Shown: one piece after another, positions 14,026 to 64,000 of the stretch
How the letters are laid out: each line of letters begins with the position of its first letter
Numbering within the stretch: position 1 is the first letter of the stretch
Origin: a virus
IMG/VR virus record: IMGVR_UViG_3300030117_001886
Location: 16,251-80,250 of that record
Length of the DNA: 64,000 bases
Strand: one strand, 5' to 3'
The notes under the pieces: generated by a model
Database searches by the model: none
Seen by the model: only the letters and a program-made list of their open reading frames with translations
Told to the model about the DNA's origin: nothing
Program-made: the position numbers and the translations under genes

Positions 14026-14037
14026 GAATAATTTGTG

Positions 14038-14621: not shown

Positions 14622-14623
14622 TC

Positions 14624-14893: not shown

Positions 14894-14899
14894 TTTTTT

Positions 14900-14932: not shown

Positions 14933-14948
14933 CATTATTAAATTTAAA

Positions 14949-16152: not shown

Positions 16153-16333
16153 TTTACCTCTTAGTACAATAGAGAATATAGTTATGCACCAGTTTAAATT
16201 TGTGGCTAAGATTATGGAAGAGGGCAAGTTTGAATCTATAAGAATACCATACTTTGGAAAGTTTTCTTCAAACAAGAAACGACGAGATTATATAACTGCA
16301 TTAAAAAATGGATCTAATAACGATAGACAATAA
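16103..16333 (+). CDS. HU/IHF-like DNA-bending protein
   Basis: 76 residues from ATG 16103 (a longer frame from 16061 exists but adds an unlikely tail). TKKEIIQRLATKYNLP at the start and SIRIPYFGKFSSNKKR at 45-60 match the HU/IHF pattern of an N-terminal helical pair followed by the strand PxFGxF. It is shorter than HU (about 90) and lacks much of the DNA-binding arm. IHF-like genes before terminase are also known in crAss-like phages. Could bend DNA for packaging or compaction. Confidence 0.65.
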   Translation: MKKTKKEIIQRLATKYNLPLSTIENIVMHQFKFVAKIMEEGKFESIRIPYFGKFSSNKKRRDYITALKNGSNNDRQ

Positions 16334-16850: not shown

Positions 16851-16859
16851 ATTTGAAGT

Positions 16860-17114
16860 ATGGATTTTCTAAAAGACATAGAGGACTATCATACTGCAAT
16901 GCAAAATGCTTATCTATTTGTTACAAAAAAGATAACAGTAGATGATGTCTACAGCGATTTGGAATCTGGGGAAGTTACAGAATTTTATTTACCATTTGAT
17001 CCATTAGTAAATGATGGAAGAGATATTGGTACTCTAGATTTACTCATTGAGCATTTTACAGAACTAGAAGAGTATGAAAAATGTCAGGAGTTAGTAAAAA
17101 TAAAAGATTTATAG
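16860..17114 (+). CDS. Small acidic protein before TerL
   Basis: 84 residues, very acidic, helical; no motif. Overlaps the TerL start by 34 bp, so the two are probably made together. May regulate or bind the terminase; not demonstrated. Confidence 0.6.
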   Translation: MDFLKDIEDYHTAMQNAYLFVTKKITVDDVYSDLESGEVTEFYLPFDPLVNDGRDIGTLDLLIEHFTELEEYEKCQELVKIKDL

Positions 17115-45928: not shown

Positions 45929-48900
45929 TGAAAAGATTAAAAGGTTTAAGTAGAGATGCGAATCCAATAGATCAGCCTGTTGGAAGTTATAGATATGCTA
46001 AGAACATGGTTCTTGACATGGCTAAAAACGCTATTGTATCCGAGTCAGGAGATATTACAGTATCTGAATTAGGACAAAATGCAAATGCAAGTATTATTGG
46101 TTTTTGTGTGTTAGATTCTACAGAGATAGTTATATTCTTAGTAACGTCATTTGGTGATTCTCAGATTGGGGTTGTAAATACTGACACTGGAAATCATAGT
46201 GTAATATTTAATGATAGCGCATGTACTGAAAAGTTAAATTTTAATTTAAATCACCCGATAGAAGCTGAATATAAAATTAATGCTACTGACAATACTAGTG
46301 TATATTTTACAGATGATTTTAATCCACCAAGATTTATTAACCTTAACGAGCCTCCTATAGCAACTCCGAGTTTAAATATAGAGGTTGCATTCAATCTATT
46401 TCCAATTATTGAAAAATACCCTAAAGCAACTTTAGTAGAAGTTACTAATGGAGGTACTCTTAATGTTGGTACATATTGGATGACTTGCCAGTTGGTGTCA
46501 AGAGATGGAGCTACTACAAATGTTTTAGATGTTACTAGGCCTATATACATTGGTCCAAATCCAGAGCCTCTAGCGCATCAACCTTTTGGTATTGGAGAAG
46601 CTTATGACAATGTAGATTTTCAAGGGGCAGATGCCGGTCAAACTAGTGGTAAAAAAATAATTGTAAATTTTGATAATTTAGATGATAGTTATACGTCTAT
46701 ACGTCCTATTGTTATAGCTCAGGTAGCAGGAGTTAGATCTGCTATAACTCTACCAGATCGCCCTTTATCACCAGGACAAACTGATATAACAATTCCATAT
46801 ACAGGATACGAAAGTTCTGCAACTTTTAATTTAGCTGAGATACAAGTAGGTAGAGCAAGTTATGAAAAAGCAAAAACTATTGCGCAGGTAGACGATGTAT
46901 TATATTTAGGAAATCTTGTAAGAACTAAAGTAGATTTAGGTTATCAAAAACATGCTAATAATATAAAAATAAGATCTAAACAACTAGATCCAAATGGAGG
47001 TGCAAATGATGTTATAGCAAATAATGTTAATGCAGCGTTTGGTATTAATCCACCCCTACATGCTGGTTCTGGTACTTTAAGTATATTTCATAATAATATT
47101 AACAGATCTACTCCAAATAACATAGCATTTGGTAGAAGTGCTTATGATAATTACTATTTTAAAGGTTATCAAAGAGATGAAACATATGCTTTTTATATAA
47201 CATGGATATTAAAAGATGGTACTGAATCTGTAGCATATCACATACCAGGCAGAGAAGCGGTTACACCTACTTTATCTGTAGAAGGAGGATATAAAGAAAC
47301 AGAAGATTATATTACAGGCGGGTTAGGAAATCCAGGACCAGCAGATCTTGATACAATGATGGGGCCGGTAGGGCCTGTTGCTGCTTCAGGTATAACTCCA
47401 AAACTTTTTCATTTAACAACATCTGGTTTTGATAAGACAGGAGGATTTAATATGGGTTTTTGGCAAAATGAAAATGAAACCTATCCAACTGCTGCAGAAG
47501 ATGTTAATGGAGATTTTGTAGGACTGCATGGACAAAAGGTTAGGCATCATCATTTTCCAGCTGAAAGTCAAATTGATAATTCAAACCAACAAATTAATGG
47601 GGTCAATGGATCTCAAATAAGTGCCCATGCTGGAGCTAATTTTAATTCAAGAGGAGGAGGAATGATATGGGATGGTGGATATTCAGGACAAGGTACTAAT
47701 TGTAGATTTAATCCTTTAGGATTTTATGCTACTGATATAGCATATCCTCAAGAACTTATTGATGCAGGAGTGTTAGGATATAAAATATACTATGCAAAAA
47801 GAGATTCTTCTAATGCTACTGTAATTGATTCAGGATTAGTTCATAATATACATGGAGCTGGTTCGGTTATATCTAATGCAGATGTAGCGCATACTTGGGT
47901 TTTAGGACAGTATGAAGAGTTTAATGATCCTGTTTTTCCTAGACGAAAGTTTGCTTTTGATGGGTATCACAGTTTAATAACTGGAGATAGTTTAGAAAGT
48001 GTTAATATGTTTAAGCAAACAAGATACTGTTGGCTAGGCATAGCTACAGGAGATCCTGCTGCTTCAACAGGAATTGATTTTTGGTTTACAGGTGTAAGTT
48101 CTATTGGAACAGATAGTAATGGTGATGATGTGCGGGGGAATAGAAGTAATAGATGGTTTGTAGATTGGACTAGGCAAAGACCTTCTACAGCAGGTAGTAG
48201 AAGTCCAATAGGTGCTCACTGGGGACATCAATCAGGTGGTTCTCAATTTGGAAATCCGTTAGGTAATGGTAACTGGGGATCACAGGCAAGTAGCGGAGCA
48301 GATATATTTCCCTATATGCCTATAGAAAAAATTTCTTATTTAAGAGCTGGTGCTGCTGATACTACATTATTTTCAGGGATTACTCTTGATAATACTGAGG
48401 GTACTCAAACTATTGCCTTTAAACTGTCAGACGGCTTTAGGATGCAGGGTTATTTTGCAACTAATGGAGGTGACATTAACGCACAGGGTTGGGGTCAAAT
48501 GTGGTTTGCACTGTTTAATATGGGATTATCGCAGACAGGAGTCGCAAACATACTTACATTTCAAACTTTGCAATCAGGAGATTTTGATGAACCTTATCAT
48601 AATAGTCCTGGTGGTACAACTAGTTCCGGACCTGGTCAGTCAGTTAGTTCTGGGGTATTAATGCCAACTACATCGTCTGCTCAAATTAATAGTTCACAGG
48701 CAGGTATATTTGGTAATCTTTATTCTGTTAGATCTGATATATATACTAGTTATAAAGACCAAAATTCTTTAGTATATACAGGACATTTTGTACCTACTCA
48801 TACAATTAACACTCCTACTGTAATACATTCAACTTTTGGTCAAACTCAACACACTTTTACTCCTGCTAATGATGCAGATTTAGGAGTGCCTCCAGAAGTT

Positions 48901-50727
48901 ATAATGGGAGGAGATACCTTTTTAGGAACAGTAGCTATAACAAAATTAAAAAGAGTTAGACCAGAACAGGCCCCTCAATCCAACGTTTCTGATCACGGAC
49001 CTAGTAGATCTACTCAAGCATTTTACACAGGAACTCCTGGTAGTGGTGATTTTTATGATGATAGTTGTACACATTTATTCCCAACTGAAAGTAGATCTCA
49101 TCCAGGTTTAAGACAGCAGCAAAATGATAATGAAAGATCACAATTTTTTCCTAAAACAGAGAGAAATAACCCAGCTATAATAGCTAATGATTACTATCAA
49201 AGAGAGTATGATTTTAATGATGACTTTAATGCTAAGAATACAGTTAGAATAGTTATACCATTTAATAATGCTGATACTTCTCAAGCAATTGATGATTATC
49301 CTACTAGAATTATTAGAAGTATAAGGTTTAATCAATCAGGTATTACAGATAATTTTAGAGTATTTTTACCATCACAATATAGAGATTTACCAAGACATCG
49401 TGGTGAGTTATGGAGATTAGAGGCAATGAAGTCTTTACTTATACCTCACATGGAAAAAGCATTGATGATAACAAGAGGTAAAGAAGAGTTAGCGGTTGGA
49501 GCAGCGGCGGCAGCCTTAGGTAGTGGTGATTTATTTGAAAGAGATCCTACAGAAGTTTTAACTACTGAAAGAGGTGAAGGTGGCACTCAGTCACAGTTTG
49601 CAGGTATAGTTACTAGACACGGTTACTTTTTTGTAGATGTAGAATCTAGAAAAGTATTTATGTTTGGAGAAACTTTAGAAGAAATATCTGATTACGGTAT
49701 GAGTGATTGGTTTAGAGAAAACTTAAAACATCCTTTGGCAGAGCACGCTGAAAGATATAATTTAGATATTCCTACAGCAGGGTCAGGTGCTACTGCTGGA
49801 TATGACCCTGTGTTAGATAGAATACTTCTTACATTTAGAAGTGTTGGTGTTACAGAAACTTTTAAAGCAAATATTTTTAATAACTCATATAGTGGTGCAA
49901 CCCCAGGGGATGGTGATATTATTTGGGATACTGACAATCAGCAGTTTGCTCTAAGAGTTTTAGCGTATCAGACTTTTGTAGATAATTTAATTCCATGGAG
50001 TGATGATACGTATTTTACTTATCAAAGTTGGACTATTTCATACTATCCTGCACTTAAAGCGTGGGGATCTTTTCATGACTATGCTCCTTTATTTTATCCG
50101 TATACATCTACAAGCTTATTTAAACTTACTACAAACAATGCTGATCATGTTTCAAGAGTATATACTTCAGATCCGTCAGCAACTCCTGGTAAATTTTTAA
50201 ATGATACTGCAACTAATAACATAGAGTTTGAGTATATTGATAATATAGAATCTTCTACAAATAAACTTTATAGTTCAATAAATTGGACTGTAGATGTAAG
50301 TAATCCTGGAACAAATGTTTTAAATCAAACTAATTCAGGATTTACTCATACTTTTGTTTATAATACACATCAAATGTCTCAAGAGGTAGCTTTAGTTGAA
50401 CAAAACACTGGTAATCAAAATACTACCTCCAATTGTAGAAGATTAGAAAGAGGGTGGTATTTTAATAACTTTAGAGATGATTCATTATTAGCACCATCAA
50501 ATAGTGGTGGTATAACAGCTTCTGATTCTATCTCAATGTTTACAGAAACTGGTATGAATATAATTCAAAATACTGCTTATTTAAATCCTAATAAAGCATT
50601 TCATGAAAGAAAAAAGTTTGTAGATAAATATTTAGGTGTCCGTTTACTAGATAAAACTAGCATTAGTAATAGAAAAGTTATATCTTTGTATCTTTCGGAT
50701 ACCTCTAAAAGAAAATTTTATAGATAA
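45928..50727 (+). CDS. Large tail protein, muzzle-like
   Basis: 1599 residues. The start (MKRLKGLSRDANPIDQPVG then RYAKNMVLD) and the IGFCVLDSTEIVIFLVTS segment recall the large beta-propeller-like tail protein called muzzle in crAss-like phages. The rest is beta-rich, with Asn/Gly/Ser-rich inserts (900-1000) that may be exposed loops. It probably forms the distal tail tube that holds internal proteins until infection. One-base overlaps with both neighbours (TAATG type). Confidence 0.68.
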   Translation: MKRLKGLSRDANPIDQPVGSYRYAKNMVLDMAKNAIVSESGDITVSELGQNANASIIGFCVLDSTEIVIFLVTSFGDSQIGVVNTDTGNHSVIFNDSACTEKLNFNLNHPIEAEYKINATDNTSVYFTDDFNPPRFINLNEPPIATPSLNIEVAFNLFPIIEKYPKATLVEVTNGGTLNVGTYWMTCQLVSRDGATTNVLDVTRPIYIGPNPEPLAHQPFGIGEAYDNVDFQGADAGQTSGKKIIVNFDNLDDSYTSIRPIVIAQVAGVRSAITLPDRPLSPGQTDITIPYTGYESSATFNLAEIQVGRASYEKAKTIAQVDDVLYLGNLVRTKVDLGYQKHANNIKIRSKQLDPNGGANDVIANNVNAAFGINPPLHAGSGTLSIFHNNINRSTPNNIAFGRSAYDNYYFKGYQRDETYAFYITWILKDGTESVAYHIPGREAVTPTLSVEGGYKETEDYITGGLGNPGPADLDTMMGPVGPVAASGITPKLFHLTTSGFDKTGGFNMGFWQNENETYPTAAEDVNGDFVGLHGQKVRHHHFPAESQIDNSNQQINGVNGSQISAHAGANFNSRGGGMIWDGGYSGQGTNCRFNPLGFYATDIAYPQELIDAGVLGYKIYYAKRDSSNATVIDSGLVHNIHGAGSVISNADVAHTWVLGQYEEFNDPVFPRRKFAFDGYHSLITGDSLESVNMFKQTRYCWLGIATGDPAASTGIDFWFTGVSSIGTDSNGDDVRGNRSNRWFVDWTRQRPSTAGSRSPIGAHWGHQSGGSQFGNPLGNGNWGSQASSGADIFPYMPIEKISYLRAGAADTTLFSGITLDNTEGTQTIAFKLSDGFRMQGYFATNGGDINAQGWGQMWFALFNMGLSQTGVANILTFQTLQSGDFDEPYHNSPGGTTSSGPGQSVSSGVLMPTTSSAQINSSQAGIFGNLYSVRSDIYTSYKDQNSLVYTGHFVPTHTINTPTVIHSTFGQTQHTFTPANDADLGVPPEVIMGGDTFLGTVAITKLKRVRPEQAPQSNVSDHGPSRSTQAFYTGTPGSGDFYDDSCTHLFPTESRSHPGLRQQQNDNERSQFFPKTERNNPAIIANDYYQREYDFNDDFNAKNTVRIVIPFNNADTSQAIDDYPTRIIRSIRFNQSGITDNFRVFLPSQYRDLPRHRGELWRLEAMKSLLIPHMEKALMITRGKEELAVGAAAAALGSGDLFERDPTEVLTTERGEGGTQSQFAGIVTRHGYFFVDVESRKVFMFGETLEEISDYGMSDWFRENLKHPLAEHAERYNLDIPTAGSGATAGYDPVLDRILLTFRSVGVTETFKANIFNNSYSGATPGDGDIIWDTDNQQFALRVLAYQTFVDNLIPWSDDTYFTYQSWTISYYPALKAWGSFHDYAPLFYPYTSTSLFKLTTNNADHVSRVYTSDPSATPGKFLNDTATNNIEFEYIDNIESSTNKLYSSINWTVDVSNPGTNVLNQTNSGFTHTFVYNTHQMSQEVALVEQNTGNQNTTSNCRRLERGWYFNNFRDDSLLAPSNSGGITASDSISMFTETGMNIIQNTAYLNPNKAFHERKKFVDKYLGVRLLDKTSISNRKVISLYLSDTSKRKFYR

Positions 50728-53700
50728 TGGCAAAATCAAGAGCACAGCAAGCAGCAATAGCAATCTCTATGAAGAAGAGAGGTAAGAAACCTAAGAAGTT
50801 AAGAAAGGGTGGATTTGATCTACTTAAAAAATATCAACCAGGAGGGTTTAGTAATTTTGGACAAATAGAATATGGTCCTAATATATTACAAGTACCTGGA
50901 GCGGATGCTGATGCTCAAAAATATTTACAACTAACTACCGCAAACTTTCAACAAGGAGTAGAGAATAGAGAAAATCAATTACTTGCTACACAGCAATATT
51001 ATCAGCAATTAGCAGATGCTGAAGCTAATCAGAATATTCAATCAGGTACTGCACAACTTCTTAATAAATTTAGAACAGCAGAGGGAAAAGGATTTGGAGA
51101 TAAAGCAAAAGATTTATTTACAAATACTTTTGACGCTGCTAGATTTGCAGAATCTATTAATCCTACGATTGAATTGGGTGGACAGATGACGACTGCATTT
51201 GATACAAGTCTGGGAGCTGTCCCCAAAGGAACACAGGCGATACAGATGGCTGATGGTGCTTATGCAAGCTTACCTGCGGGAGAAGCTGCACCACAAGGTG
51301 CTACTGTTTTAGGAACCGCACCTAGCGCTGCTACTCAGGCTGCATCAAATTTTGCGACTAATACAGCTGTAGGTAGTACAACAGCTAGCGTTGGAGGTGC
51401 CGTGGCACCATATGCGTTGCCTGCATATATTTTAGGAGAGGGTATAGGTATGATGGCAGATGATGACGATCCAACTACTTGGACAGGTGGAGAAATTGCT
51501 GGAGACGTTCTTTCTACGGCAGGTAAAAGAGTTGGGCAAGGAGCCTTAATAGGGTCTGTTGCAGGACCTCCTGGACAGGCACTTGGAGCTGGTGTAGGAC
51601 TTGTAGCGGGTACAATAGAAAGTATAATAAGAGGCCTTACTGGTAGAAAGAGGGCAAGAGATGCAGAAGAGGATAGGAGAGAGGAGGAATTGAGATTGTA
51701 CAACGAGTATTTAGCAAATCGTAGATCTCAAATGAGAAGTATGGCTTCTGACTATTTACAACAAGGTACAATGTATAGAGGAAAAATGGGTGGTATTAAA
51801 CCTATGAACAATCAGGGAGATTTGGTGGTATATGGACCTACACACGAACAGGGTGGTGTAATGAGAGATTCTACAACTGAGTTAGAGGGTGGTGGTATGA
51901 AAGGCGGTGTAGCTTTACCTGGCGAGGTTATAACAAACGTAAAAGATAATAAGGGTAATACAAGAGAGTATTACTTTTCTGATCATTTAAAGAATCCTAG
52001 TACAGGCAATACATTTGCTGAAGACTACAGAAAATCAGGAGGTATGAATTACAATGCAAAACAAATGTTTGCTAAACTACAAGAGCAAGTAGCTGGCAAA
52101 AACGATAAAGATAGAAGTGCACAAACTATAGCAGAGGATGGAGGTTTCGGTATGATGTTACCTACCATGCCATCAGATACTATACAAGGTATAAGCATGG
52201 ATCAAAATGCAGCTAAGCTTAAGTTTGAAAGAAATCTTAAAAGAAAGGGGATAAATCCATTTTCTCCTAATATCAAACGAAACACACAGGTATTAAAAAA
52301 TAATGAAGGTAATTTTATATATAGATATATAACTCCTTCTACTGATAATATGAGAGATGGGGGTATGGGTGAAAGATTAGAAGATATAGCTGGACAGCTA
52401 ACAAAGGCATCTAAGATGCATGCAGGACAATCTAAGAAGATTGGATCTATGGCAAAACAAATTATGAAAAAAGCAAAAAAAGGTGGGTATAAAATGTACC
52501 AAGATGGTGGTGAGGATGATGTTGTATCAGGCATGGTAACTTTACCTGAGGTTACTGTTACAGATAGAAGAACTCGTTCTGAACTAGAAAAATTGTTAAA
52601 CATAGAAGGATTAAAAAGAGAGTTAGAATTTTTTAATGAAGGTGTATTAGGAAGAACTCCGTTAAAAGGAGAAACAGGTGCAGAGACTGTTATGAACATT
52701 GCTAGTATGACTCCTTTAGGTATGGGTAGACTTGGCGTATTAAAGACTGTTAAAGGTTTAAAAGATGTAGCAACTAAAACTCCAAAGGTTATAAAAGAAT
52801 TTTTTAGAAAAAAGAAACCATTTCCACAAGGAACAATGGATATACCTCTTCCAGGAGGTGGTGTAATTAAACAACCTAGTTTATTACCGGCTACTGTAAA
52901 GAAAAATAAATCAGCAAAAGAAATATTAGATAACATAAGAAAGTTTACTAAAGAAAATAAAAGTATTATTGGAAGAACTGCTACTGGTTTAGGAGTTGCA
53001 GGTGGAGGATCAGCTTTACTCACTGACTCAGAGCCAAGCATGGAAGTAAAAACTATGGAGGAATTAAATAAAGAATTGCTAAACCGAGTACAGACTGAAA
53101 TACCTACTAAAAGAGATACATCTGATTTATCAAGTGCTCAAGAATATATAATGAAAAGTTTACGAACTGGTGAAATGACTTATCCTGAAGTATCTAATAT
53201 GACGGATAATCCATTATTATTACAATCAGTTATAGACAGTGTAAAAGAAGTACAAGGAAAGGAACATGGCGGTTTTCATCCTCCTAGAAAACCTAAAGTT
53301 GGATTCTTTACGTTAGAAAATCAGCCTTCAAGATTTGATAGAAGTATGGAAGCTACTATGTTTAGAAATGCTCTTAATTCGTATAACAGAGCTCTTGGGG
53401 CTATGCAGACTACTGAGGATAGTTTAATTAATCCTATTACAACTCCTGCAACACCTACTCCAGATTTATCTTTACCATCTCAGGATACATTGCCTACTAT
53501 GCCTACTGAAATGGTTCAGCCTACGATTGGAATGCGTACTACTGAACAAGCTGAAGATTTAACTGCAGTAAAAGCACTAACCGCTGATCAGGTTGCAGAA
53601 ATGACTGATGAGCAGCTAGATGCGTATATGAATACTTTTGCTTTAGATCCTAATGTTGTAAAGGTTGGTGAGGTAGATGTAGTAGACGAAAGTGAGGAAA

Positions 53701-54791
53701 CTCGTAAAGCAAGAGAAGCTGTAGAAACAAGCAGGAAACGTGGCGCACCAACTACTGTTTTACCTATACAGGGACTAATACCGACAGAGAGTAGATTGGG
53801 AGCATATATTTCTCCAAATAATTTTATAGATGACTTTACTAAATTATCTCCTTTACTGGCTACAGGACCTGATGGATCTTTCCCCCCGGATTTTGGACCT
53901 AATTTAGATCCTGACGCAGAGAGAAAAATGCAGTTATACATGAAAGAAAACATGAATCCTGAACGATTTGAGCCAAGAACACAAAGTCGACAGTTGTTAA
54001 CAGCATCACTTGTAGATACAGATACAGATCCTAAACTGGATATTAATACTCTTGTTGATCCGAAAACAACTGTAATGGCTGACTTGAAGAATCAGTTAAA
54101 CATAAAGGATGATGATACAGATACAGATCCTGAAAAGAAAGGAGGAGATGGTTTTAATGTAAAAAACTTATTGTCTAAGGTAGGTCTAGATAAAGTAAAA
54201 CCTAGAGATGTATTAGGAGTTGCAGCAGCAGGTTTAGGATTTGCAAAAGCAAATAAACTTGCTAAAGAAATGGGAGAGTTGGAGTTAAAGATAAAAGGTG
54301 ATATTGGTGTAGACAACATACCTAAACAAAAAGTATCTATGGAAGCTGAGAAAGTTAAGTTACAACAAGATACTAATGCTTTAGTACAATCTATGACAGA
54401 GCAAGGTAAGAGTACTGCTGAGATAGCTGCTATTAGAGCTCAAGGTGATGAGGCAATTAGAAAAATAGGACAGACAGAGAAGAACATGCAATCGCAGTTA
54501 GATCTTAAAACTGATGCATTGAATGCTACTAATAAGTTCAAGAAGGATGCTGCTAATAAAAATATAGAATTAAGCAAAGCCTTAGCTGATTTAGATATAT
54601 CTGCAGCAGAGAAAAGAAATAGAATGAATATTTGGAACAAGCTTACTAATGAAGTAATAGGTATGAGCTTAGACAGAGCTAAATTGAAGTCAGTAGAAAA
54701 ACAAATGGATGCTCTTGCTGACTCGTTAGCAAAAGGTAATGAAGCTATGACAAAAACTTTGATGGAAGAGATAAAAAAATTAACGACATAA
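50727..54791 (+). CDS. Large internal (ejected) virion protein A
   Basis: 1354 residues. Basic N-terminus (MKKRGKKPKKLRKGG), a Gly/Ala-rich hydrophobic stretch near 268-300 (LIGSVAGPPGQALGAGVGLV) able to enter membranes, then VYGPTHEQGGVM and EVITNVKD, common in internal proteins of large podoviruses. The middle is Pro/Thr-rich and looks disordered; the C-terminal 350 residues are a coiled coil. Likely stored in the tail or head and ejected with the DNA. No enzyme motif seen. Confidence 0.65.
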   Translation: MAKSRAQQAAIAISMKKRGKKPKKLRKGGFDLLKKYQPGGFSNFGQIEYGPNILQVPGADADAQKYLQLTTANFQQGVENRENQLLATQQYYQQLADAEANQNIQSGTAQLLNKFRTAEGKGFGDKAKDLFTNTFDAARFAESINPTIELGGQMTTAFDTSLGAVPKGTQAIQMADGAYASLPAGEAAPQGATVLGTAPSAATQAASNFATNTAVGSTTASVGGAVAPYALPAYILGEGIGMMADDDDPTTWTGGEIAGDVLSTAGKRVGQGALIGSVAGPPGQALGAGVGLVAGTIESIIRGLTGRKRARDAEEDRREEELRLYNEYLANRRSQMRSMASDYLQQGTMYRGKMGGIKPMNNQGDLVVYGPTHEQGGVMRDSTTELEGGGMKGGVALPGEVITNVKDNKGNTREYYFSDHLKNPSTGNTFAEDYRKSGGMNYNAKQMFAKLQEQVAGKNDKDRSAQTIAEDGGFGMMLPTMPSDTIQGISMDQNAAKLKFERNLKRKGINPFSPNIKRNTQVLKNNEGNFIYRYITPSTDNMRDGGMGERLEDIAGQLTKASKMHAGQSKKIGSMAKQIMKKAKKGGYKMYQDGGEDDVVSGMVTLPEVTVTDRRTRSELEKLLNIEGLKRELEFFNEGVLGRTPLKGETGAETVMNIASMTPLGMGRLGVLKTVKGLKDVATKTPKVIKEFFRKKKPFPQGTMDIPLPGGGVIKQPSLLPATVKKNKSAKEILDNIRKFTKENKSIIGRTATGLGVAGGGSALLTDSEPSMEVKTMEELNKELLNRVQTEIPTKRDTSDLSSAQEYIMKSLRTGEMTYPEVSNMTDNPLLLQSVIDSVKEVQGKEHGGFHPPRKPKVGFFTLENQPSRFDRSMEATMFRNALNSYNRALGAMQTTEDSLINPITTPATPTPDLSLPSQDTLPTMPTEMVQPTIGMRTTEQAEDLTAVKALTADQVAEMTDEQLDAYMNTFALDPNVVKVGEVDVVDESEETRKAREAVETSRKRGAPTTVLPIQGLIPTESRLGAYISPNNFIDDFTKLSPLLATGPDGSFPPDFGPNLDPDAERKMQLYMKENMNPERFEPRTQSRQLLTASLVDTDTDPKLDINTLVDPKTTVMADLKNQLNIKDDDTDTDPEKKGGDGFNVKNLLSKVGLDKVKPRDVLGVAAAGLGFAKANKLAKEMGELELKIKGDIGVDNIPKQKVSMEAEKVKLQQDTNALVQSMTEQGKSTAEIAAIRAQGDEAIRKIGQTEKNMQSQLDLKTDALNATNKFKKDAANKNIELSKALADLDISAAEKRNRMNIWNKLTNEVIGMSLDRAKLKSVEKQMDALADSLAKGNEAMTKTLMEEIKKLTT

Positions 54792-54795: not shown

Positions 54796-56751
54796 ATGGC
54801 ACAGGGAAAATATGATTTACCAATAGATGTAGAATATAAGTCTAGGTTCGTTGATCCTGGACTTGACACATTTAAGGAGGCTGCACTCAACTATAGAAAT
54901 AGATTTGATAAAAATCAACAGGCTACTAACACCATGCTAACGGCCTTAGCTAATGAACAGTTTATGCCTGGTGAGCAGGATGCTACACAGCAAGAGATGC
55001 AAGATAATATAAATAATATATTAGGAAATGTTGTTGAAACAGGAGCATATCACACAGCTGACTTAGCGGTAAACAATGCTTTAAGATACTATACAGCAGA
55101 CCCAAAGCTAGCAGTTAAAAGACAAAACTATAAAGAGTTCCAAAAGACTCAGCTAATGTATGATACATACGGAGCTAATAATATATACGATCCTCAAAAG
55201 AATATGTTACCTAACTTTCAATCTGTATCTACAGATGGAGAAGGGAAGACAGTTTACAATCGTTATGTAAACAAAGCTCAGAAGGTAGAAGATTATAATG
55301 CACAGATACAAGCACTAGTTGGCAACATAGCCTCAGATAAAACCTTTATAGCACAGTATGGTGTAGAGGGTATACCTATTCTACAAGATATATTAATGAC
55401 AGGTACATCAACCAGAGTAAGCGACGAGAAAGTAAATAATATAATCAATGATCTAATAGGAGCATATAAGATGACTCCTGCAGGTATACAACACTTTGAT
55501 AGATATAGAAACTCTGATCAGAATGAGTTTGGTCAGCCACTACAGACTGATAAGCAAGCTGATAAAGCTATATTTGATTACATGAAAGCTGTTACTAAGA
55601 ATCAAGTAAAAACAGATATTACATTAAATCAACCTACAACTACAAGTTTTTCTAGAACTGGCCCACAGTCATCAGACAAGACTTCATTAGACTTTGTAAC
55701 AAATGTATACAAGAATAATAAAGATATTATATCTATTAGTCCTAATTTACAAAAACAAGTTCTAGGCTATCAAGAGTCTGAGCAGTTTGAGAATGCATAT
55801 ACTACAAGTGTAGATAGAGTTATAGTAGACTTTGCATCTGCAAATCTATCAGAAAGTCAATTAAATACTATATTTGATGGAACTGGTTTTGAAAATTATG
55901 AGAATAAAGAAAAATTATTACAAACTTTAGACTCATTTGGATTTACAGCATCTGATGAGCAGATGGCATATACACTAAAACATTTAGGTATACAAGACAA
56001 TGCTCAAAACAGAAAAGCCTTAACGGCTGTATCAAATCAAATAACTGAGAGATTAGCTGCAGCTGAAATATCTAATATGGGTGGAGCATTAAATCAATCT
56101 TTCCAAAATGTTGTATTCCAACCAAATGGTAATGCAAAAGTTGTAGGTGGTATGTCTTATCCTATGGGAACTATGTACATACCTACAGATCAACTTGAAT
56201 CTATATTTGATACACCAGGATTACTTCAAAGTCCTCTAGGTTTATTAAGTTATGAAGATGCTCAAGTTGGAGGTAGAAAAGTATTTGCTGAGGGAGAAGT
56301 AACGGGTAAAGATGGTAAAAAATATTTAGTAATACCTAACGCACTTGGTAAACCTATTGACATGTCAGATCAAGGCAATCAAGAACTTCTTACTAAGAAT
56401 GCTTATAGCTTAAGCGATTCTGATCTTAGAGAAACTCAACAGCAGAGATCTACAGATAGGAATGCAGCTATTGGAGGTACTCTATCTGCTCCTCAAGTGG
56501 TTGGTCCTATAGATGAAGTACTATCTGCTTTACAAATATCTGAGCCTACTAGAAACGCATTATCTGAAATAGTTACACTAGCAATGAAAGAAGGTAATAG
56601 AGAATTACCACTTAAAGGAGGACAAACCATAGCTAAGGAATTTAATAGTCTAGTTACTCAGTTACTGCGTGACGCCCCTGACAGGTATCCTACTAGAGTA
56701 GATGCTGAGAGAGCAGCTCTTGTAATTTTTGAAAGTAGTTATTTACAATAA
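54796..56751 (+). CDS. Large internal (ejected) virion protein B
   Basis: 651 residues, mostly helical, Gln/Asn-rich, with no enzyme motif or membrane span. Begins MAQGKYDLPIDVEYKSRFVD. Set between two large presumed ejection proteins, it probably belongs to the same internal complex. Function unknown. Confidence 0.6.
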   Translation: MAQGKYDLPIDVEYKSRFVDPGLDTFKEAALNYRNRFDKNQQATNTMLTALANEQFMPGEQDATQQEMQDNINNILGNVVETGAYHTADLAVNNALRYYTADPKLAVKRQNYKEFQKTQLMYDTYGANNIYDPQKNMLPNFQSVSTDGEGKTVYNRYVNKAQKVEDYNAQIQALVGNIASDKTFIAQYGVEGIPILQDILMTGTSTRVSDEKVNNIINDLIGAYKMTPAGIQHFDRYRNSDQNEFGQPLQTDKQADKAIFDYMKAVTKNQVKTDITLNQPTTTSFSRTGPQSSDKTSLDFVTNVYKNNKDIISISPNLQKQVLGYQESEQFENAYTTSVDRVIVDFASANLSESQLNTIFDGTGFENYENKEKLLQTLDSFGFTASDEQMAYTLKHLGIQDNAQNRKALTAVSNQITERLAAAEISNMGGALNQSFQNVVFQPNGNAKVVGGMSYPMGTMYIPTDQLESIFDTPGLLQSPLGLLSYEDAQVGGRKVFAEGEVTGKDGKKYLVIPNALGKPIDMSDQGNQELLTKNAYSLSDSDLRETQQQRSTDRNAAIGGTLSAPQVVGPIDEVLSALQISEPTRNALSEIVTLAMKEGNRELPLKGGQTIAKEFNSLVTQLLRDAPDRYPTRVDAERAALVIFESSYLQ

Positions 56752-56769: not shown

Positions 56770-59700
56770 ATGCCAGCAAAAAGAAAAAGTAAAGATCCTA
56801 AAGTTGGGACTGGTAAAAAACCAAAAGGTTCTGATAGAAGACTGTATACTGATGAGAATCCCAAGGATACTGTAGGTATAAAGTTTGCCACACCTGCTGA
56901 TGCTAGAGCTACTGTAGCTAAGGTTAAAAAAATAAATAAGCCTTTTGCTAGAAAAATACAAATCCTTACAGTAGGCGAACAAAGAGCTAAGGTTATGGGC
57001 AAGTCAGAGGTTGTTAATATATTTAAAAAAGGTAAAGAAGCCATTCGTAAACAAAATAAACAAAAGAAACAGTTAGGTGGCTTAGACGAGAATAACATGC
57101 CTATAGGAACAGATATAGGACAATCATATCTGTCTACAATACCTAAGCCACAATCTGTAAACATACCAGTATCTGACATAAGTAAGCTTGCTACAAGGGG
57201 ATCTCAGCTTATGCAGCTAGAGTCTGACCTTGGTGCAATATCTGGTACACGCCCTCTTACAATAGAAGAAGCTCCTGAGTTATATAAAACTAATTTTAAC
57301 ACTGATACTAAAAACTTCTGGAATGCTTTGATGAAGAAGTATAGTGAGTTTAGAATATTAGGAGCAAAAGATAGATTAGGTAAACTAGCTGTGCAAATGG
57401 CTGAGTATAGTAATTCTTTAGAACTAGTAGAACAGTTATATGGTAGTAATGATATTACACTAGATGAAAGGAATGTACTAAATAAGGAAATAACTGATGG
57501 TAAATTATTTAAAAAGAGCGACAAGGTGGGTCCTGGTGCTCAAGTGCTTAACAGAATATTAGGACTACGCTACGATCAAGTTTCTCCACAAGATATACAA
57601 AACTTTGTAAATACTACATACTCACAAGGTTTACTTACAGCTGAAGATTTACAAAGAACTACAATAGATGAATCTGTAACTATGGAATCTATGCTTGAGA
57701 AGCGTAGAGAGTTACAAGAGGAGATAGAGGGCAGAGAGTCTAAGATGGATAGAAGAGCTAAGACTCTTGGCGAAGACTATGCTCTTAGAACTAAACTATC
57801 TGAAGCTAGGGGAGAAACTGCTGGGGGAGACGTGTTTGGTCAGCAAGATTATTTTGAGTATCAACTTGCAGATGATTTAGCAGGTATGGTGTCTACTTGG
57901 GAGGGTATGGCAACTTCTATAGCAGGAGCAACTATACCAGCAATTGTTAGAAATGTATCAAAAACAAAAGACCCTAGAACTGCTTTAGGCCTTACAGCGG
58001 CAGAGATTGCTACTATAGCGTACGGACAGTATTGGAGTAGATCTGCAGAAACATCTATGGAAGTAGGTGAGGCTTATGAGCAGAAGGTGCAACAGCTTAT
58101 GAAAGATAAGCAAGAGGAAATAAAGAAAAGCGGATCTACTAGACCTCTTACACAAAAAGAAACAAATGACATTTATATACAAGCCGCTGACGGGCTTGAT
58201 GAGTTGAGAGATAAAAACATGACTCTTGGTGCAACTGACCTTGTACAGTTTGCTTTAACTTTTGGTAGAATACCTGGAATGAAATGGGCTGGAAACACAG
58301 CTATAGGTAAAGTATCTCAAGCTGCTAGATCTAATCCTTATACCAGAGTTGGGTATAACCTTGGAAGGTATGGGCTAGCTATAGGATTATCTAGACAGTT
58401 AGAAGGTATGGAAGAAGGTATGCAGTATCGTTGGATGGAGGATTACATGGGTAATCATAACATTGGCGATGCAGGATTCTTTCCTCATGCAGCTGAAGGT
58501 GTAAAAGATATGGCTAACTACTTTGGTATGGTCACTGGCATCAAAGAGAAGGACAAGATGTACAACACACCTGGTATGCAAAATGCGATACAAGCAGGTA
58601 AAGATATGGCAACTGTAATGACAGGAGCTGGTCGTGCTCATAGAGGTATTACAGATCAATATCATTATAGGGTAGCGTTAAATGCGTTGGGAGAGGATGG
58701 TAAAAACTACGACGCCTTAGAAGCTAGCAGAATAAAAAGAGAAGCACTACTACCGTACTTTATAAATGGTAGAACAAAATATTTACAGGACGCCTTATAC
58801 AGAATGGGTAGTAAAGGCACTATAGATGGGTTTGATAAGGATGCAGCAATAGATGCAATCAAGGAAATAGATCAATTAAAAAATGACTATAACAAAATCT
58901 TCGATAAGAGGTCTCCAATAGGGATCTCTATCGCTGGTTTTGAGTATGACATATTAAGAGGAGCACAAATATCTCCACATACACAATATGATAGAGGATT
59001 TGTATTTAATAATGTATCCGATATACGATCTCAGGAAAAACTATTAGAAGACCTTAAGGGACAAAGAGATACGCACCTGTCTAACAAAAGTGAGCTTGCA
59101 GACTTTTTTGTTGATGATGCCTTAACGGACGCTCAGAAACAATCTATAGAGCAAAAACTTGCACAACGTGGTATAAATGCTACGCCTGTAGATCTACTAA
59201 TAGAAGAGTTAGAAGCAGATATTGCTAGCAAGAAACAAGACAATGCTAATATAGGTACAGGTGATTATACATTTGCTGCAACTCCTGGACTAGCTCCTGG
59301 TTTATATAAAAGAGAAGACTTTGATGCACTCTTTATACCAGATAGAAAAGGTAAACTAGCAGGCGGTATTCTAAAACAAATACAAGATTTACAGAAAAAG
59401 AAGTTAGATTCTCAAACGCAGGTAGAAGGTGCTCCTGCATTTACTGAGGAGGATCAACAGTTGTTAGATAATCTTATACTAGCTAAGAATAAATTAGAGT
59501 ATGAAGCTGCTTTTGAATATTTTGGCAAGCAAAGACTTAAGAATAAAAACAGAATAGCTAGAGCTGCAGCTTACGACACGCTAACTAGACTTATATCTAT
59601 ACTAGAAAGTAGAGGAAAGGAAGGGCTAAAAGAAGTTTTACCATCTATACTGACTAATAATACTAAGATGGATCAGCAAACTATTGAAGAGATAGCTCAG

Positions 59701-62700
59701 CTTGCAGATCAAATTGTTACAGATAATCAAAAAGCTGTTGAAAGATCTGGTCAAATAGAAGACGAGATAGATACTTTACTAGGTATTGATGGAGAGATGA
59801 CTGAGGCAGAGCTTGCAGATCATGATCGTTTATTAAAAGAGAAGGAGCAGACGGGTTTAAGTACAAATGTTCAAGAGTTAGAAAGACTTCGCAAAAGAAA
59901 AGAAGCTGATAGAAAGTCTAAAGAACTTCGTAAAGAACAGCTTGCTTTAAATGAAAGTATAAAAACAGGGTCGCAAATAGCACAGCAGGCACAGAATTTA
60001 TTAAATCGTTTAGCAAAAGATAATACAGACCATCTACTAGACGATTCTAACTATACACCTAGCACTAATGAGTCGTTGGTAAGAGATGTAGCGGTAGAAG
60101 ATATTAGTAATGAACTTGCAAAAATTGCTGCAGAGTTGCAAGATAACCCACAATATGCTAACCTTGATAGGATAGATAGTGCTCTTAATGATTTAGAAAG
60201 ACGTATAGCTATATTTGGTTTGCGTATAGAGGATACTGAATTACAATCAGAAAAAGATTTATATGAATCTGTAAAGCAAGAATTAGAGGGGCTGTTACCA
60301 AGTGCATCTGAGTTAAGAAGTATTATAGAACAAAATGCTATAAGTAGAGGAATAGCACAACTAGAACTAGAGGGTGATGTAGTTACTCAAATGCTTGCAC
60401 CTTTAGGGTTGGATGCAGAGTTTAATGTGGTAGAGGAAGGTCTTAACAAAAAGTTACAAGATGTAGTATCTCAAGAGCAAATTGATTCTGTAATTTCAGG
60501 TGTTCAGTCGGGAGAGATTACTGATAAAATAATGGCTGCACAAATTCTACTGGACCTGTTTAAAATAGGTCTTAATGAACAGCCTGGATTTAAAAATGAT
60601 TTAGTACAGGATATACAAGGAACTATAAAAAGTTTAAAACTTGGTTTAGAGAATCAGTTTAGAGGAATGCAAAAAGCAGGGGGTAATGCATATATAAAAG
60701 ATCCTGCAAATAACTTTCCATCAATATACTTTAACTTTCTAGGCAGAGAGCAGAAAGATCCAAACAATGCTTACTTTAAATATCAGGACCATGTAAGTGA
60801 GCCTAAACTACTTAGAGAGCTTAAGCAGCAAGGCATAATGCCTGAGATGCAAAAACTTCTTGAATTACATCTATCAGTAAAAACATTAGAAAACTTCCTA
60901 AAAGAACTTGAGTCAGATGTAACAGCTGCTACTAATATACTAAATGAGAAACAGTTAGTTGATAATAAAAGACTTACATACCTACCAACAAAACAACAGA
61001 TCAATGCTGTAAGAGAGATTGTATCATTCTTGTACACTCCGCTAGCTAAACTAAGCAAAGGTAAGAAGGGTCTAGGCAGTGTCTCTGCGCTTCTACAAGG
61101 GGCTGCGGGTACAGGTAAAACAAATATAGTTTTAAAAATGGCTATTCAAATGGCAGGTCTTGCAAACAATCAGATCTTTGCATTTGGACATAACGATAGC
61201 TCATCAGAAACTATAAACAAATCTCTAGGATTACCTACAAATACAATTGAAAAGTTCTTATCTGATGATACTGTAATATATGATGCAGTTAGATTACTTA
61301 TAATTGATGAAGCGCCTGGTATATCTACAGAACAACAATTGCAAATACAGCAAAAAGTAGAACAAATAAACGAGGGTAGAGCAGCTGGTGATAAGCTTAG
61401 AGTTATACTAGCAGGTGACCCTGCACAAATTACACAAGATGGATCAAACAGACCACTTGCTACTAGTCAAATCGAGTTTAACTTAGCTAAAGTTATTACG
61501 CCTGTTACATCTTTATATAGAAGTGATAACCCTGCAATTATAGATTTCCAAGATTCGTTCAGAAGAAGAGTAGATATTCCTACAAATCGTATAATAAATG
61601 TACGATCAACAGGTGTAAACTTTAAGACAGCTGATGAAACGCAAGGCATGCTATCTGGTGTTATTGGTTTAGGCGGCAACATGAAAGATGAGATTGTAGA
61701 AAGACTTATGAAGTTAGAGGATGCGGAGGCAGGTCCTAGAGCTATCATTACAAATCCATCTAGGGTAGAAGAGTATAGAGCTTTCTTAGAAGCTAATAAC
61801 ATAAAGAAGACAGAGGTATTATCATATATTGATGCACAAGGTAGAACTCTAGAAGAGGTATACATGGACATAAATGCTGCAGACTTTGCGGATGAAGCAG
61901 GACAGATAGATGGGGAAGCATTCAATAAAGCATTGTACACAGCTGCTTCTCGTGCAAGTAGATTGGTAATAGCATCTGGTCTAAACATTGTAAATGCTGT
62001 AGATGTAAACTTAGATAACTTGTCATCAGGATTATCACAAGAGATAAGTGATAGAAATGATCAGTATATAACTGAAGTAAATGCAAATGCAGAGTTTATC
62101 AAAATGTTCCCACAACTTGTAGAAGATGTAGATCCTGGGCAAGTAGTAGTTACACCTACAGAAACCCAGTCTCCAGAAGAGGCACAGAAAATTGTGGATG
62201 AACTATTTCCACTTGAAGAAGAAGGTGATCCTTTAGGAATAGACGATAGAGTAGAGTTTGAGTTAGACGACGCTGATGTAGATGTTAATCTAGCTGAGCA
62301 AGATGTAGAGTATCAAGAGAATAAGTTTGATACAGGCGGACAATCTATCACGTACAAAGGTAGAAAAGAAAAAGGTAAACCAAAGTCTGATGCACTATAC
62401 TACCCAGAGTCCGAAGCATTATTAGAAGACATAGATTCAGGCGGTCAGGCTATAGCTCCTATATCAGAAGATATGGGTGTTATGTTTGTAAAAGTAGACC
62501 GCGATGGGCAGTCTGGTATTGCAGTTATACAACAAGCCTACAGAACAATGTCTGATGGTACAGCAGATATAAGCAGACCTATACAAGATACATATAAAAG
62601 AGTTGCGGTAATAGGGCTAGATGAACTTGATACAGGACTAAGCTTCCTGTCTAACCAAGAAAAAGAGGTACTAAAAGCTGCACTACAAAGTGATGATCTT

Positions 62701-64000
62701 GGCGCTAGGTTTATACAGTTTGGTACAAAGAATGCTAGTACTGTAGAAGATTTAGATGGTGATGTTGCAGCCTACAATTTATTAGCAGGCTTTAGAATAC
62801 CAAAAGGTGGTACACAGAGATTTAAATTTAAGTACAAATCTGCAAAGAGGGTAAGAGGCGAAGTACGTGTACAAAATCCAAACATTTGGGCCCAAGACAA
62901 TAGAGGTGTAATAGATAGAGTAAAGCAAAAGTTTTTGAGCGGTGCTTATACAGATTCTCAACCGCCTAAAAATCCTAATGCAATTAGTTTTGATCTTAAA
63001 GTATTTACAAGAGAGGATATAAATAATGCAGCGGTTGCTATGCCTGAGATGTCCTCAGAGTTAGTAAAGAACTTACAACCAGGTAGACCGTATCTTGTTA
63101 TAAGTAATGCAGAGGTAAAGAATGGTGAGCCTAAAACATATGCAATAGAGCTAAGACCTAGACCTATATCACCAAAGATACAATCTGACTTTGATAGATT
63201 TTATGAACCTATGCTAGTGTTTATACGAACTATGAAAGAGCTTGAGCAGATACTACAGGCACCATACGGGTCAAAAGGATTACATCAACTTATTGTACCT
63301 GGTAAGAGATCTGAGGAGCAAATGCAGGAGCTTATTGCAGCTAGACTACAAGAGATAGGACAGCCTCAATTGTTACCACAAGCGCTAGAGCTTAGAGATG
63401 AAATACTAATGTTACGTTTTGAAAAGCGTAATGAGAAAGGAGAGCTTACAGGTATAGGCCCTGCACAGAAAGCTATTAATAGATTGGGTGTTTCCAATTC
63501 TATGTTAAGAACTGTTAGGATGACTAAAGATGGTAAGCGTGCAGTTCCAAGAAGTCTTCTTACATATTTAAATGAGCAAGAAGAATTAGACTCTATGTCT
63601 AATAGAAACAAGTTTACTATAGAGAGGTTAGAAGATTTGTTTGACCCAAATGTAAACTGGAACAACGGTGGTGTAGGTCAAACCGGTCTATATTTACCAA
63701 TCCCTAACTTTGCTGTATACAAGAACATAGATCAGTATATGGAGCAGATAGAGCAATCATTAATAGATATACTAGAAGAGGTTGAGCCTAGTAAGATTAT
63801 ACTAGAAAGACCGGGCAAGCCTAAACCACAGAAGGCACCAACAAGACAGGTAGAAAAGAAAGAAGATAATATTATCATATCTGATGAAGAGCAAAAAGAG
63901 GCTGATAATATTATAGGAGGCATAGAGTTAGACTATAGAGATAACAACAGCGGGTTAAAAGGTGAGAAAATTACTAGACAGAAAGCACTAAATTTACTAA
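56770..64000 (+). CDS. Giant internal virion protein with SF1 (RecD/Dda-like) helicase domain (3' end beyond window)
   Basis: Open from ATG 56770 to the window edge: at least 2410 residues. Domains seen: a basic N-terminus; coiled-coil segments; two hydrophobic Gly/Ala stretches near 380-410 and 500-545; long helical regions at 700-1400; then a complete SF1 helicase. Its motifs are TKQQINAVREI (Q-motif type), Walker A G1444-AAGTGK-T1451, motif II I1512-DEAPG, motif III LAGDPAQ (1547-1553), SLYRSDN, and motif VI TAASRA (1724-1729). After it come acidic and further unknown domains. Position after two large presumed ejection proteins suggests it is carried in the virion and ejected; this is inferred. 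In crAss-like phages the comparable gene codes for a virion RNA polymerase; no polymerase motif is seen here. Confidence 0.82.
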   Translation, partial: MPAKRKSKDPKVGTGKKPKGSDRRLYTDENPKDTVGIKFATPADARATVAKVKKINKPFARKIQILTVGEQRAKVMGKSEVVNIFKKGKEAIRKQNKQKKQLGGLDENNMPIGTDIGQSYLSTIPKPQSVNIPVSDISKLATRGSQLMQLESDLGAISGTRPLTIEEAPELYKTNFNTDTKNFWNALMKKYSEFRILGAKDRLGKLAVQMAEYSNSLELVEQLYGSNDITLDERNVLNKEITDGKLFKKSDKVGPGAQVLNRILGLRYDQVSPQDIQNFVNTTYSQGLLTAEDLQRTTIDESVTMESMLEKRRELQEEIEGRESKMDRRAKTLGEDYALRTKLSEARGETAGGDVFGQQDYFEYQLADDLAGMVSTWEGMATSIAGATIPAIVRNVSKTKDPRTALGLTAAEIATIAYGQYWSRSAETSMEVGEAYEQKVQQLMKDKQEEIKKSGSTRPLTQKETNDIYIQAADGLDELRDKNMTLGATDLVQFALTFGRIPGMKWAGNTAIGKVSQAARSNPYTRVGYNLGRYGLAIGLSRQLEGMEEGMQYRWMEDYMGNHNIGDAGFFPHAAEGVKDMANYFGMVTGIKEKDKMYNTPGMQNAIQAGKDMATVMTGAGRAHRGITDQYHYRVALNALGEDGKNYDALEASRIKREALLPYFINGRTKYLQDALYRMGSKGTIDGFDKDAAIDAIKEIDQLKNDYNKIFDKRSPIGISIAGFEYDILRGAQISPHTQYDRGFVFNNVSDIRSQEKLLEDLKGQRDTHLSNKSELADFFVDDALTDAQKQSIEQKLAQRGINATPVDLLIEELEADIASKKQDNANIGTGDYTFAATPGLAPGLYKREDFDALFIPDRKGKLAGGILKQIQDLQKKKLDSQTQVEGAPAFTEEDQQLLDNLILAKNKLEYEAAFEYFGKQRLKNKNRIARAAAYDTLTRLISILESRGKEGLKEVLPSILTNNTKMDQQTIEEIAQLADQIVTDNQKAVERSGQIEDEIDTLLGIDGEMTEAELADHDRLLKEKEQTGLSTNVQELERLRKRKEADRKSKELRKEQLALNESIKTGSQIAQQAQNLLNRLAKDNTDHLLDDSNYTPSTNESLVRDVAVEDISNELAKIAAELQDNPQYANLDRIDSALNDLERRIAIFGLRIEDTELQSEKDLYESVKQELEGLLPSASELRSIIEQNAISRGIAQLELEGDVVTQMLAPLGLDAEFNVVEEGLNKKLQDVVSQEQIDSVISGVQSGEITDKIMAAQILLDLFKIGLNEQPGFKNDLVQDIQGTIKSLKLGLENQFRGMQKAGGNAYIKDPANNFPSIYFNFLGREQKDPNNAYFKYQDHVSEPKLLRELKQQGIMPEMQKLLELHLSVKTLENFLKELESDVTAATNILNEKQLVDNKRLTYLPTKQQINAVREIVSFLYTPLAKLSKGKKGLGSVSALLQGAAGTGKTNIVLKMAIQMAGLANNQIFAFGHNDSSSETINKSLGLPTNTIEKFLSDDTVIYDAVRLLIIDEAPGISTEQQLQIQQKVEQINEGRAAGDKLRVILAGDPAQITQDGSNRPLATSQIEFNLAKVITPVTSLYRSDNPAIIDFQDSFRRRVDIPTNRIINVRSTGVNFKTADETQGMLSGVIGLGGNMKDEIVERLMKLEDAEAGPRAIITNPSRVEEYRAFLEANNIKKTEVLSYIDAQGRTLEEVYMDINAADFADEAGQIDGEAFNKALYTAASRASRLVIASGLNIVNAVDVNLDNLSSGLSQEISDRNDQYITEVNANAEFIKMFPQLVEDVDPGQVVVTPTETQSPEEAQKIVDELFPLEEEGDPLGIDDRVEFELDDADVDVNLAEQDVEYQENKFDTGGQSITYKGRKEKGKPKSDALYYPESEALLEDIDSGGQAIAPISEDMGVMFVKVDRDGQSGIAVIQQAYRTMSDGTADISRPIQDTYKRVAVIGLDELDTGLSFLSNQEKEVLKAALQSDDLGARFIQFGTKNASTVEDLDGDVAAYNLLAGFRIPKGGTQRFKFKYKSAKRVRGEVRVQNPNIWAQDNRGVIDRVKQKFLSGAYTDSQPPKNPNAISFDLKVFTREDINNAAVAMPEMSSELVKNLQPGRPYLVISNAEVKNGEPKTYAIELRPRPISPKIQSDFDRFYEPMLVFIRTMKELEQILQAPYGSKGLHQLIVPGKRSEEQMQELIAARLQEIGQPQLLPQALELRDEILMLRFEKRNEKGELTGIGPAQKAINRLGVSNSMLRTVRMTKDGKRAVPRSLLTYLNEQEELDSMSNRNKFTIERLEDLFDPNVNWNNGGVGQTGLYLPIPNFAVYKNIDQYMEQIEQSLIDILEEVEPSKIILERPGKPKPQKAPTRQVEKKEDNIIISDEEQKEADNIIGGIELDYRDNNSGLKGEKITRQKALNLL

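What the first reader, a model, noticed from the sequence alone, without database searches (positions are those of the whole stretch)
56770..64000. Complete SF1 helicase inside a giant presumed ejection protein
All SF1 motifs (Walker A 1444-1451, DEAP 1513-1516, GDPAQ 1549-1553, TAASRA 1724-1729) are intact in a protein of over 2400 residues that follows two large internal-protein genes. An ejected helicase could pull the genome into the cell or load on entering DNA, an alternative to pulling by a virion RNA polymerase.
Basis: partly seen in the sequence, partly recalled or inferred. Interest (0 to 1): 0.85.

Follow-up and report, generated by a model that had tools for sequence, protein, structure and literature searches.

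The report
Helicase built into phage virion RNA polymerase
A crAss-like phage makes one giant (about 4,700-residue) protein, predicted to be carried in the virus particle, that contains both a DNA-helicase-type motor and the RNA polymerase that starts infection, which suggests that these phages may carry their own DNA opener for the polymerase.

Summary
The helicase is real and lies at the stated residues. It is a compact superfamily-1 (SF1) motor with all catalytic motifs.

The phage is a Crassvirales member. The contig ends overlap by 108 bp, and the reading frame runs across the junction to 4,715 aa. A sister phage has the same protein as one uninterrupted 4,623-aa frame.

Beyond the window the same polypeptide carries a zincin-like HEALH motif and a crAss-like virion RNA polymerase (catalytic DFDVD at 3818-3822; best solved match phi14:2 vRNAP, then QDE-1). 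So the helicase is not an alternative to a vRNAP; it is built into the vRNAP protein.

Homologous genes in phi14:2 and crAss001 make virion proteins, which supports the ejection idea by homology only.

The arrangement recurs: N-terminal to the polymerase, or in an upstream ORF, in one environmental clade; a different, Dda-like SF1 domain lies C-terminal in Suoliviridae and another clade. At least three origins are likely.

Most likely function: it opens or clears template for the vRNAP during entry (inferred). This form lacks room for the usual strand-splitting pin and 2B domain, so unwinding is unproven. GenBank already labels relatives "DNA helicase"; I found no paper on the fusion in the library held.

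The parts
56770..64000 (+). Giant cargo gene, first 2,410 codons; continues at the record's start (contig 108-7025 = locus L002) to 4,715 aa. Off-window parts in L002 coordinates: zincin-like HEALH 288-302; vRNAP core about 1995-4847 with catalytic DFDVD 4329-4343; stop ends at 7025
   Evidence: uninterrupted 4,623-aa homologue in sister phage G001
60985..61977 (+). Compact SF1 helicase core, residues 1406-1736
   Evidence: Pfam, profile, AlphaFold/Foldseek
61099..61122 (+). Motif I (Walker A) GAAGTGKT, residues 1444-1451
   Evidence: invariant GK[T] in relatives
61306..61317 (+). Motif II (Walker B) DEAP, residues 1513-1516
   Evidence: DE invariant
61414..61428 (+). Motif III GDPAQ, residues 1549-1553
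   Evidence: D and Q invariant
61834..61860 (+). Motif V AQGRTLEEV, residues 1689-1697
   Evidence: alignment with Dda AQG
61939..61956 (+). Motif VI TAASRA, residues 1724-1729
   Evidence: Arg invariant
56770..57069 (+). Basic N-terminal domain (about residues 1-100), absent from sister phage G001, shared with Pelagibacter phage HTVC033P gp40 and cyanophage P-TIM68
54796..56751 (+). Cargo-position gene, 651 aa; 18 bp before the giant gene
   Evidence: synteny; homologue in G001
50727..54791 (+). Cargo-position gene, 1,354 aa
   Evidence: synteny; homologue in G001
45928..50727 (+). Tail stabilisation / muzzle-type protein, 1,599 aa
   Evidence: PHROG 15100, 8.8e-57
17081..19069 (+). Large terminase subunit
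   Evidence: PHROG 6681, 1.8e-132
19073..21310 (+). Portal protein
   Evidence: PHROG 6547, 4.4e-121
24388..25809 (+). Major capsid protein, crassvirus type
   Evidence: Pfam Crass_capsid, 1.9e-76

Best explanation
The gene encodes a 4,715-residue crassvirus cargo protein that joins a crAss001 gp47-position cargo region, an SF1 helicase-type motor, a zincin-like site and the crAss-type virion RNA polymerase in one chain. It is inferred to be packaged in the capsid and ejected with the DNA. In the cell the SF1 motor most likely works for the attached polymerase: using ATP, it opens or clears the entering double-stranded DNA (exposing template, or stripping the RNA:DNA hybrid or bound proteins) so that early genes can be read. 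Shown: the domains, their linkage and their conservation. Inferred from homology: packaging and ejection. Inferred only: ATPase and translocation activity, polarity, and the coupling to transcription.
For: Helicase. vRNAP in the same chain: tblastn to phi14:2 g066 7e-19, profile without phi14:2 finds g066 at 2.8e-33 and PDB 6VR4 at 1.5e-59, fold match 6VR4 then QDE-1, catalytic DFDVD. One chain confirmed in sister phage. Helicase and vRNAP are fused, or in separate ORFs with the helicase upstream, in relatives; at least three origins on the vRNAP tree. Helicase is the most constrained part in two pairs. Virion presence of homologues (PMC10172136). Precedents: QDE-1 uses ssDNA and depends on the DNA helicase QDE-3 (PMC2950127); N4 vRNAP works on denatured but not native DNA in vitro (PMC10925440).
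Against: No biochemistry. The compact form lacks room for the 1B pin and 2B domain, so it may translocate without unwinding. Most crassviruses, phi14:2 and crAss001 included, show no such domain near their vRNAP. The zincin-like site lies between motor and polymerase and could separate them. I could not read the phi14:2 vRNAP paper, so its template requirement is not cited.
Confidence: 0.5

Rival explanations
1. Genome-entry motor: the ejected helicase grips the leading DNA and pulls the genome into the cell, alone or together with the vRNAP.
For: A vRNAP genome-ejection motor is proposed for DEV (PMC10925440); coupling of vRNAP fusions to DNA translocation is suggested for crAss-like phages (PMC10770324); the motor motifs are intact.
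Against: SF1B-type enzymes track along ssDNA (general knowledge), while the entering genome is dsDNA; most crassviruses enter without this domain.
Confidence: 0.13
2. Polyvalent effector toolkit: helicase, zincin-like protease and PD-(D/E)XK nuclease are delivered together against host DNA or defences, and share a chain with the vRNAP only for packaging.
For: Nuclease and zincin-like motifs occur in the same set of cargo proteins and shuffle position; zincins, helicases and N4-type RNAPs occur in polyvalent proteins (PMC5512222).
Against: The SF1 domain recurs specifically with the vRNAP chain or the ORF upstream of it. No methylase or other restriction-type domain was found by Pfam.
Confidence: 0.17
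3. Replication or repair starter: the ejected helicase loads on incoming DNA for early replication, recombination or circularisation rather than for transcription.
For: Nearest folds are RecD2, Dna2, RecD and Dda, which act in replication and repair.
Against: The phage has its own DnaB-like and SF2 helicases and PolA in the replication block.
Confidence: 0.1
4. Cargo remodeller: the ATPase helps the giant protein itself to unfold, refold or assemble around the exit channel.
For: Cargo proteins must partly unfold to pass the tail (PMC10172136).
Against: Nucleic-acid-motor motifs V and VI are conserved; ATP is not expected inside the capsid (general knowledge).
Confidence: 0.05

Closest known systems
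Cellulophaga phage phi14:2 gp66 virion RNA polymerase (PDB 6VR4), with gp67 and gp65
   Same: Homologous polymerase core, DFDxD motif, same gene order, virion proteins by MS/MS
   Different: In phi14:2 these are three separate proteins and no SF1 helicase was found there
Suoliviridae giant proteins, cr118_1 gp14 (4,946 aa) and cr50_1 gp59 (4,774 aa), annotated 'exonuclease V' and 'DNA helicase'
   Same: One chain with zincin-like motif, vRNAP and an SF1 helicase
   Different: Helicase is C-terminal to the polymerase and of Dda-like build with long III-VI spacing and classical motif V
SF1B helicases RecD2, Dda, Pif1
   Same: SF1 motifs and fold
   Different: The query lacks room for 1B pin and 2B insertions; about 13-15% identity
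N4/DEV giant virion RNA polymerase (Schitoviridae)
   Same: Giant ejected polymerase linked to other domains (PMC10925440, PMC10770324, PMC5512222)
   Different: N4 vRNAP is of T7 type (literature); no SF1 helicase is mentioned in the passages read
QDE-1 with RecQ helicase QDE-3 (Neurospora)
   Same: Fold relative of the polymerase that uses ssDNA and depends on a DNA helicase (PMC2950127)
   Different: Separate proteins, SF2 (RecQ) helicase, eukaryotic silencing pathway

Membership tests
Crassvirales (crAss-like phages) | Crassvirus MCP, TerL, portal and tail stabilisation protein | tested here: met
   Crass_capsid 1.9e-76; PHROGs 6681, 6547, 11589; 15100
crAss-like virion RNA polymerase (phi14:2 gp66 family) | Sequence and fold homology with catalytic DFDxD | tested here: met
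crAss-like virion RNA polymerase (phi14:2 gp66 family) | Packaged in the virion and ejected | not testable with these tools
   Shown for homologues only (PMC10172136)
SF1 helicases | Motifs Q, I, II, III, V, VI and tandem RecA fold | tested here: met
SF1B Dda/RecD2-type helicases | 1B pin and 2B insertions between motifs | tested here: not met
   I-II 63 aa and III-VI about 170 aa against 77 and 281 in Dda
SF1B Dda/RecD2-type helicases | 5'-3' translocation on ssDNA | not testable with these tools
   needs an assay
Polyvalent proteins (Iyer 2017) | Several enzymatic domains in one delivered protein, with zincin | tested here: inconclusive
   Several domains shown; zincin at motif level only; delivery inferred
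N4-type virion RNA polymerase | T7-like single-subunit polymerase fold | tested here: not met
   Fold search gives 6VR4 and QDE-1, no T7-type polymerase among the 50 best

The most novel reading that the evidence does not exclude
The ejected protein is a combined ATP-driven DNA motor and RNA polymerase: a 2B-less SF1 translocase that, coupled to the vRNAP, draws in and opens the phage genome at the membrane, so that entry, strand opening and early transcription are one machine.
Probability: 0.15. Interest if true: 0.88.

Novelty: new variant of a known kind. Interest (0 to 1): 0.62.

Why it matters
How virion polymerases open double-stranded DNA on entry is an open question: N4 vRNAP is inactive on native DNA in vitro and is thought to rely on host gyrase (PMC10925440). 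A crassvirus lineage that carries a motor on the same chain as its vRNAP, and at least two other lineages that joined a different SF1 motor to it, point to a shared need and give a direct test (Walker A mutant, native against denatured template). It also corrects annotations in abundant gut phages, where the vRNAP chain is labelled as a helicase, an exonuclease or a nuclear-pore-like protein.

Tried and rejected
Rejected: helicase as alternative to a vRNAP (same chain has the vRNAP). Rejected: frame artefact at the contig junction (108-bp overlap with 4 differences and identical encoded residues; sister phage has one intact frame). Rejected: clamp-loader reading suggested by PHROG 168 and RFC matches, which are weak P-loop matches; motifs III, V and VI and the fold favour SF1. 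Rejected: decayed passenger (dN/dS, invariant motifs). Led nowhere: viral-contig scans with single proteins and with A4; phmmer of the C-terminal half against PDB; the phi14:2 vRNAP paper and Yutin 2018 (not held); Rfam on 44-64 kb. Not used as evidence: the A1 profile match to 6VR4, because phi14:2 was in that profile. A first script that looked for exact terminal repeats found none and briefly gave 4,751 aa by plain concatenation; the overlap-aware join gives 4,715.

Full report
OBSERVATION. The reading frame at 56770-64000 (+) is open for 2,410 codons and runs off the window. Pfam AAA_30 (8.7e-15), AAA_19 (1.9e-8) and SLFN-g3_helicase (1.1e-5) exceed their gathering scores on this stretch. 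An ordered SF1 motif pattern arose in 2 of 20,000 shuffles. AlphaFold of residues 1340-1800 with 23 relatives gave pLDDT 81.2 and pTM 0.77. Foldseek ranks RecD2 (9.4e-11), Dna2, RecD, SLFN11 and T4 Dda among the best solved structures, and the cr118_1 'DNA helicase' third among viral models. TM-scores are modest (about 0.4-0.5), so the finer family is not fixed by fold.

EXTENT. The window is bases 16251-80250 of an 80,250-base virus record. The last 108 bases of the record match its first 108 with 4 differences, and the encoded residues are identical. The giant frame therefore continues at the record's start and ends at contig 7025: 4,715 aa without a stop. This join is an inference from overlap, but a sister phage (G001, source of L024) has one uninterrupted 4,623-aa frame that matches residues 150-4677 in a single alignment of 1,940 bits, with the same upstream and downstream genes.

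WHICH PHAGE. The major capsid protein hits Pfam Crass_capsid at 1.9e-76. TerL, portal and MCP hit head-and-packaging PHROGs at 1.8e-132, 4.4e-121 and 2.9e-83, and the 1,599-aa tail stabilisation protein hits PHROG 15100. The order tail tube, tail stabilisation, cargo-position genes, giant gene(s) is that of Crassvirales.

WHAT ELSE IS IN THE CHAIN. The C-terminal half matches phi14:2 g066, whose structure is known (tblastn 7e-19 over 823 aa). DFDVD at 3818-3822 aligns with the DFDID of phi14:2, with invariant flanking residues in ten crassviruses. As an independent test, a profile from nine members of this clade, without phi14:2, finds g066 at 2.8e-33 and no shuffled sequence. A profile of 12 rows without phi14:2 finds PDB 6VR4 alone, at 1.5e-59. 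The predicted polymerase core (pLDDT 67, moderate) matches 6VR4 (2.5e-19) and QDE-1 (2.7e-4) and then, weakly, a phage gp64 RNA polymerase (0.14). A zincin-type HEALH lies at 2471-2475, in a place where many relatives have HExxH; the fold was not tested. The next gene (contig 7027-10962, 1,311 aa) carries a PD-(D/E)XK-like nuclease region (PDDEXK_1 at 0.0017, and 0.00037 in the sister, both just under the Pfam cut-off). A profile grown from it finds the region in dozens of related ORFs, among them the vRNAP chain itself in L021, L023, L026, L028, L031 and L032.

HOW COMMON. The 80 best IMG/VR loci for the vRNAP core were examined. An SF1 domain lies N-terminal in the same ORF in L021, L023, L024, L026-L028 and L030-L033 and, as a separate case, in L094. 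It lies in a separate ORF, upstream of the vRNAP ORF where both were detected, in L029 and L035-L039 (in L039 no vRNAP ORF was detected). It lies C-terminal in L043, L051, L052, L064, L077, L083, L092 and L096, as in cr118_1 and cr50_1. The rest show none within the held flank. Flanks of 10 kb, and selection by similarity to this polymerase, limit the counts. On a quick maximum-likelihood tree of the vRNAP core, this phage pairs with L024 inside a 17-row clade of N-terminal or upstream helicases (SH-aLRT 99), while the C-terminal cases lie in two other places and L094 in another. Labels cluster more than in any shuffle, and I count at least three origins.

TWO HELICASE TYPES. In the N-type clade, motif I to II spans 60-70 aa and motif III to VI 148-195 aa (in L030 the script's motif VI call is unclear). 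In T4 Dda these are 77 and 281, and in the C-terminal type (and L094) 76-94 and 249-335. The C-terminal type also has the classical motif V. So the helicase of the finding is a different, stripped form without room for the 1B pin or the 2B domain. ATPase residues are nonetheless invariant in 14 N-type members at 21-44% identity to the query. In two related pairs the helicase is the most constrained part of the protein (dN/dS 0.18 against 0.29 and 0.40; 0.06 against 0.11 and 0.10). Synonymous sites are near saturation there, so only the ranking is meaningful.

VIRION AND EJECTION. GenBank marks phi14:2 g065, g066 and g067 as found by virion proteomics. In crAss001, gp45, gp46, gp47, gp49 and gp50 were detected in virions, with room for example for 6 copies of each RNAP-associated protein, and are proposed to leave the capsid ahead of the DNA in partly unfolded form (PMC10172136). 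For this phage itself, presence in the virion and ejection are inferred.

MECHANISM. I think it most likely (0.5) that the motor serves the polymerase on the same chain, by opening or clearing template. Reasons: partnership with the vRNAP as fusion or in an upstream ORF; repeated origin; strong constraint; and two precedents. QDE-1, the nearest non-phage fold, uses ssDNA and depends on the DNA helicase QDE-3 in vivo (PMC2950127). N4 vRNAP works on denatured but not native DNA in vitro, and a vRNAP genome-entry motor is proposed for DEV (PMC10925440). What weakens this: no biochemistry; the compact form may only translocate; most crassviruses examined lack it; and the zincin-like site lies between motor and polymerase and could separate them. 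Rivals are genome pulling (0.13), a polyvalent effector toolkit (0.17), a replication or repair starter (0.10) and a cargo remodeller (0.05).

NOVELTY. The cr118_1 and cr50_1 giants are deposited as 'exonuclease V' or 'DNA helicase', so an SF1 match in a crassvirus giant protein is not new as an annotation. In the papers held I found no account of an SF1 helicase in the vRNAP chain. Yutin 2021 lists SF1 helicase among crAss-like phage genes and describes large multidomain transcription proteins, but its figures are not held, and its Fig. 3 may show such a domain. The term helicase does not occur in the crAss001 atlas. Searches gave nothing on the fusion. Most subscription papers are absent, so this is no proof of novelty. 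I rate it a new variant of a known kind.

Noticed in passing
window 56770-57069: The first ~100 residues of the giant protein are a basic domain over 60% identical to a 96-aa stand-alone protein of Pelagibacter phage HTVC033P, also found in cyanophage P-TIM68, but absent from the sister crassvirus G001: a domain swapped between unrelated marine phages, perhaps a packaging or DNA-binding tag.
   Followed up: partly
L032 and L033, start of the helicase (aa 977- of ORF 2-17497): The Walker A site is preceded by an intein-like C-terminal junction (VHN before TGKT), as if an intein sits in the P-loop of the fused helicase.
   Followed up: no
window 38324-40861: An 845-aa protein in the structural block has repeated Cys/Asp-rich units and a weak match to a type IX secretion sorting domain (Por_Secre_tail, 3.7e-5, just under cut-off).
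   Followed up: partly
L009, L016 (cr8_1, cr271_1): Genes deposited as 'nuclear pore complex-like protein' contain the vRNAP core with DFDID: likely misannotation.
   Followed up: yes
L010 (crAss001 gp47), residues about 1714-1851: The virion protein gp47 of crAss001 matches the PD-(D/E)XK-like nuclease profile grown from this phage's downstream gene.
   Followed up: partly
L020 16122-24338: The vRNAP core of bajarodcaudo virus 1 is split over two ORFs with an endonuclease gene between them, as if interrupted by an intron.
   Followed up: no
L008, giant and following gene: cr4_1 giant proteins show 38 and 18 in-frame stops under the standard code, in line with reported stop-codon reassignment in crAss-like phages.
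   Followed up: no
window 63893-64000 and L002 1-108: The record's ends overlap by 108 bp with 4 differences and identical encoded residues: a circular or terminally redundant genome assembled from slightly different strains.
   Followed up: yes
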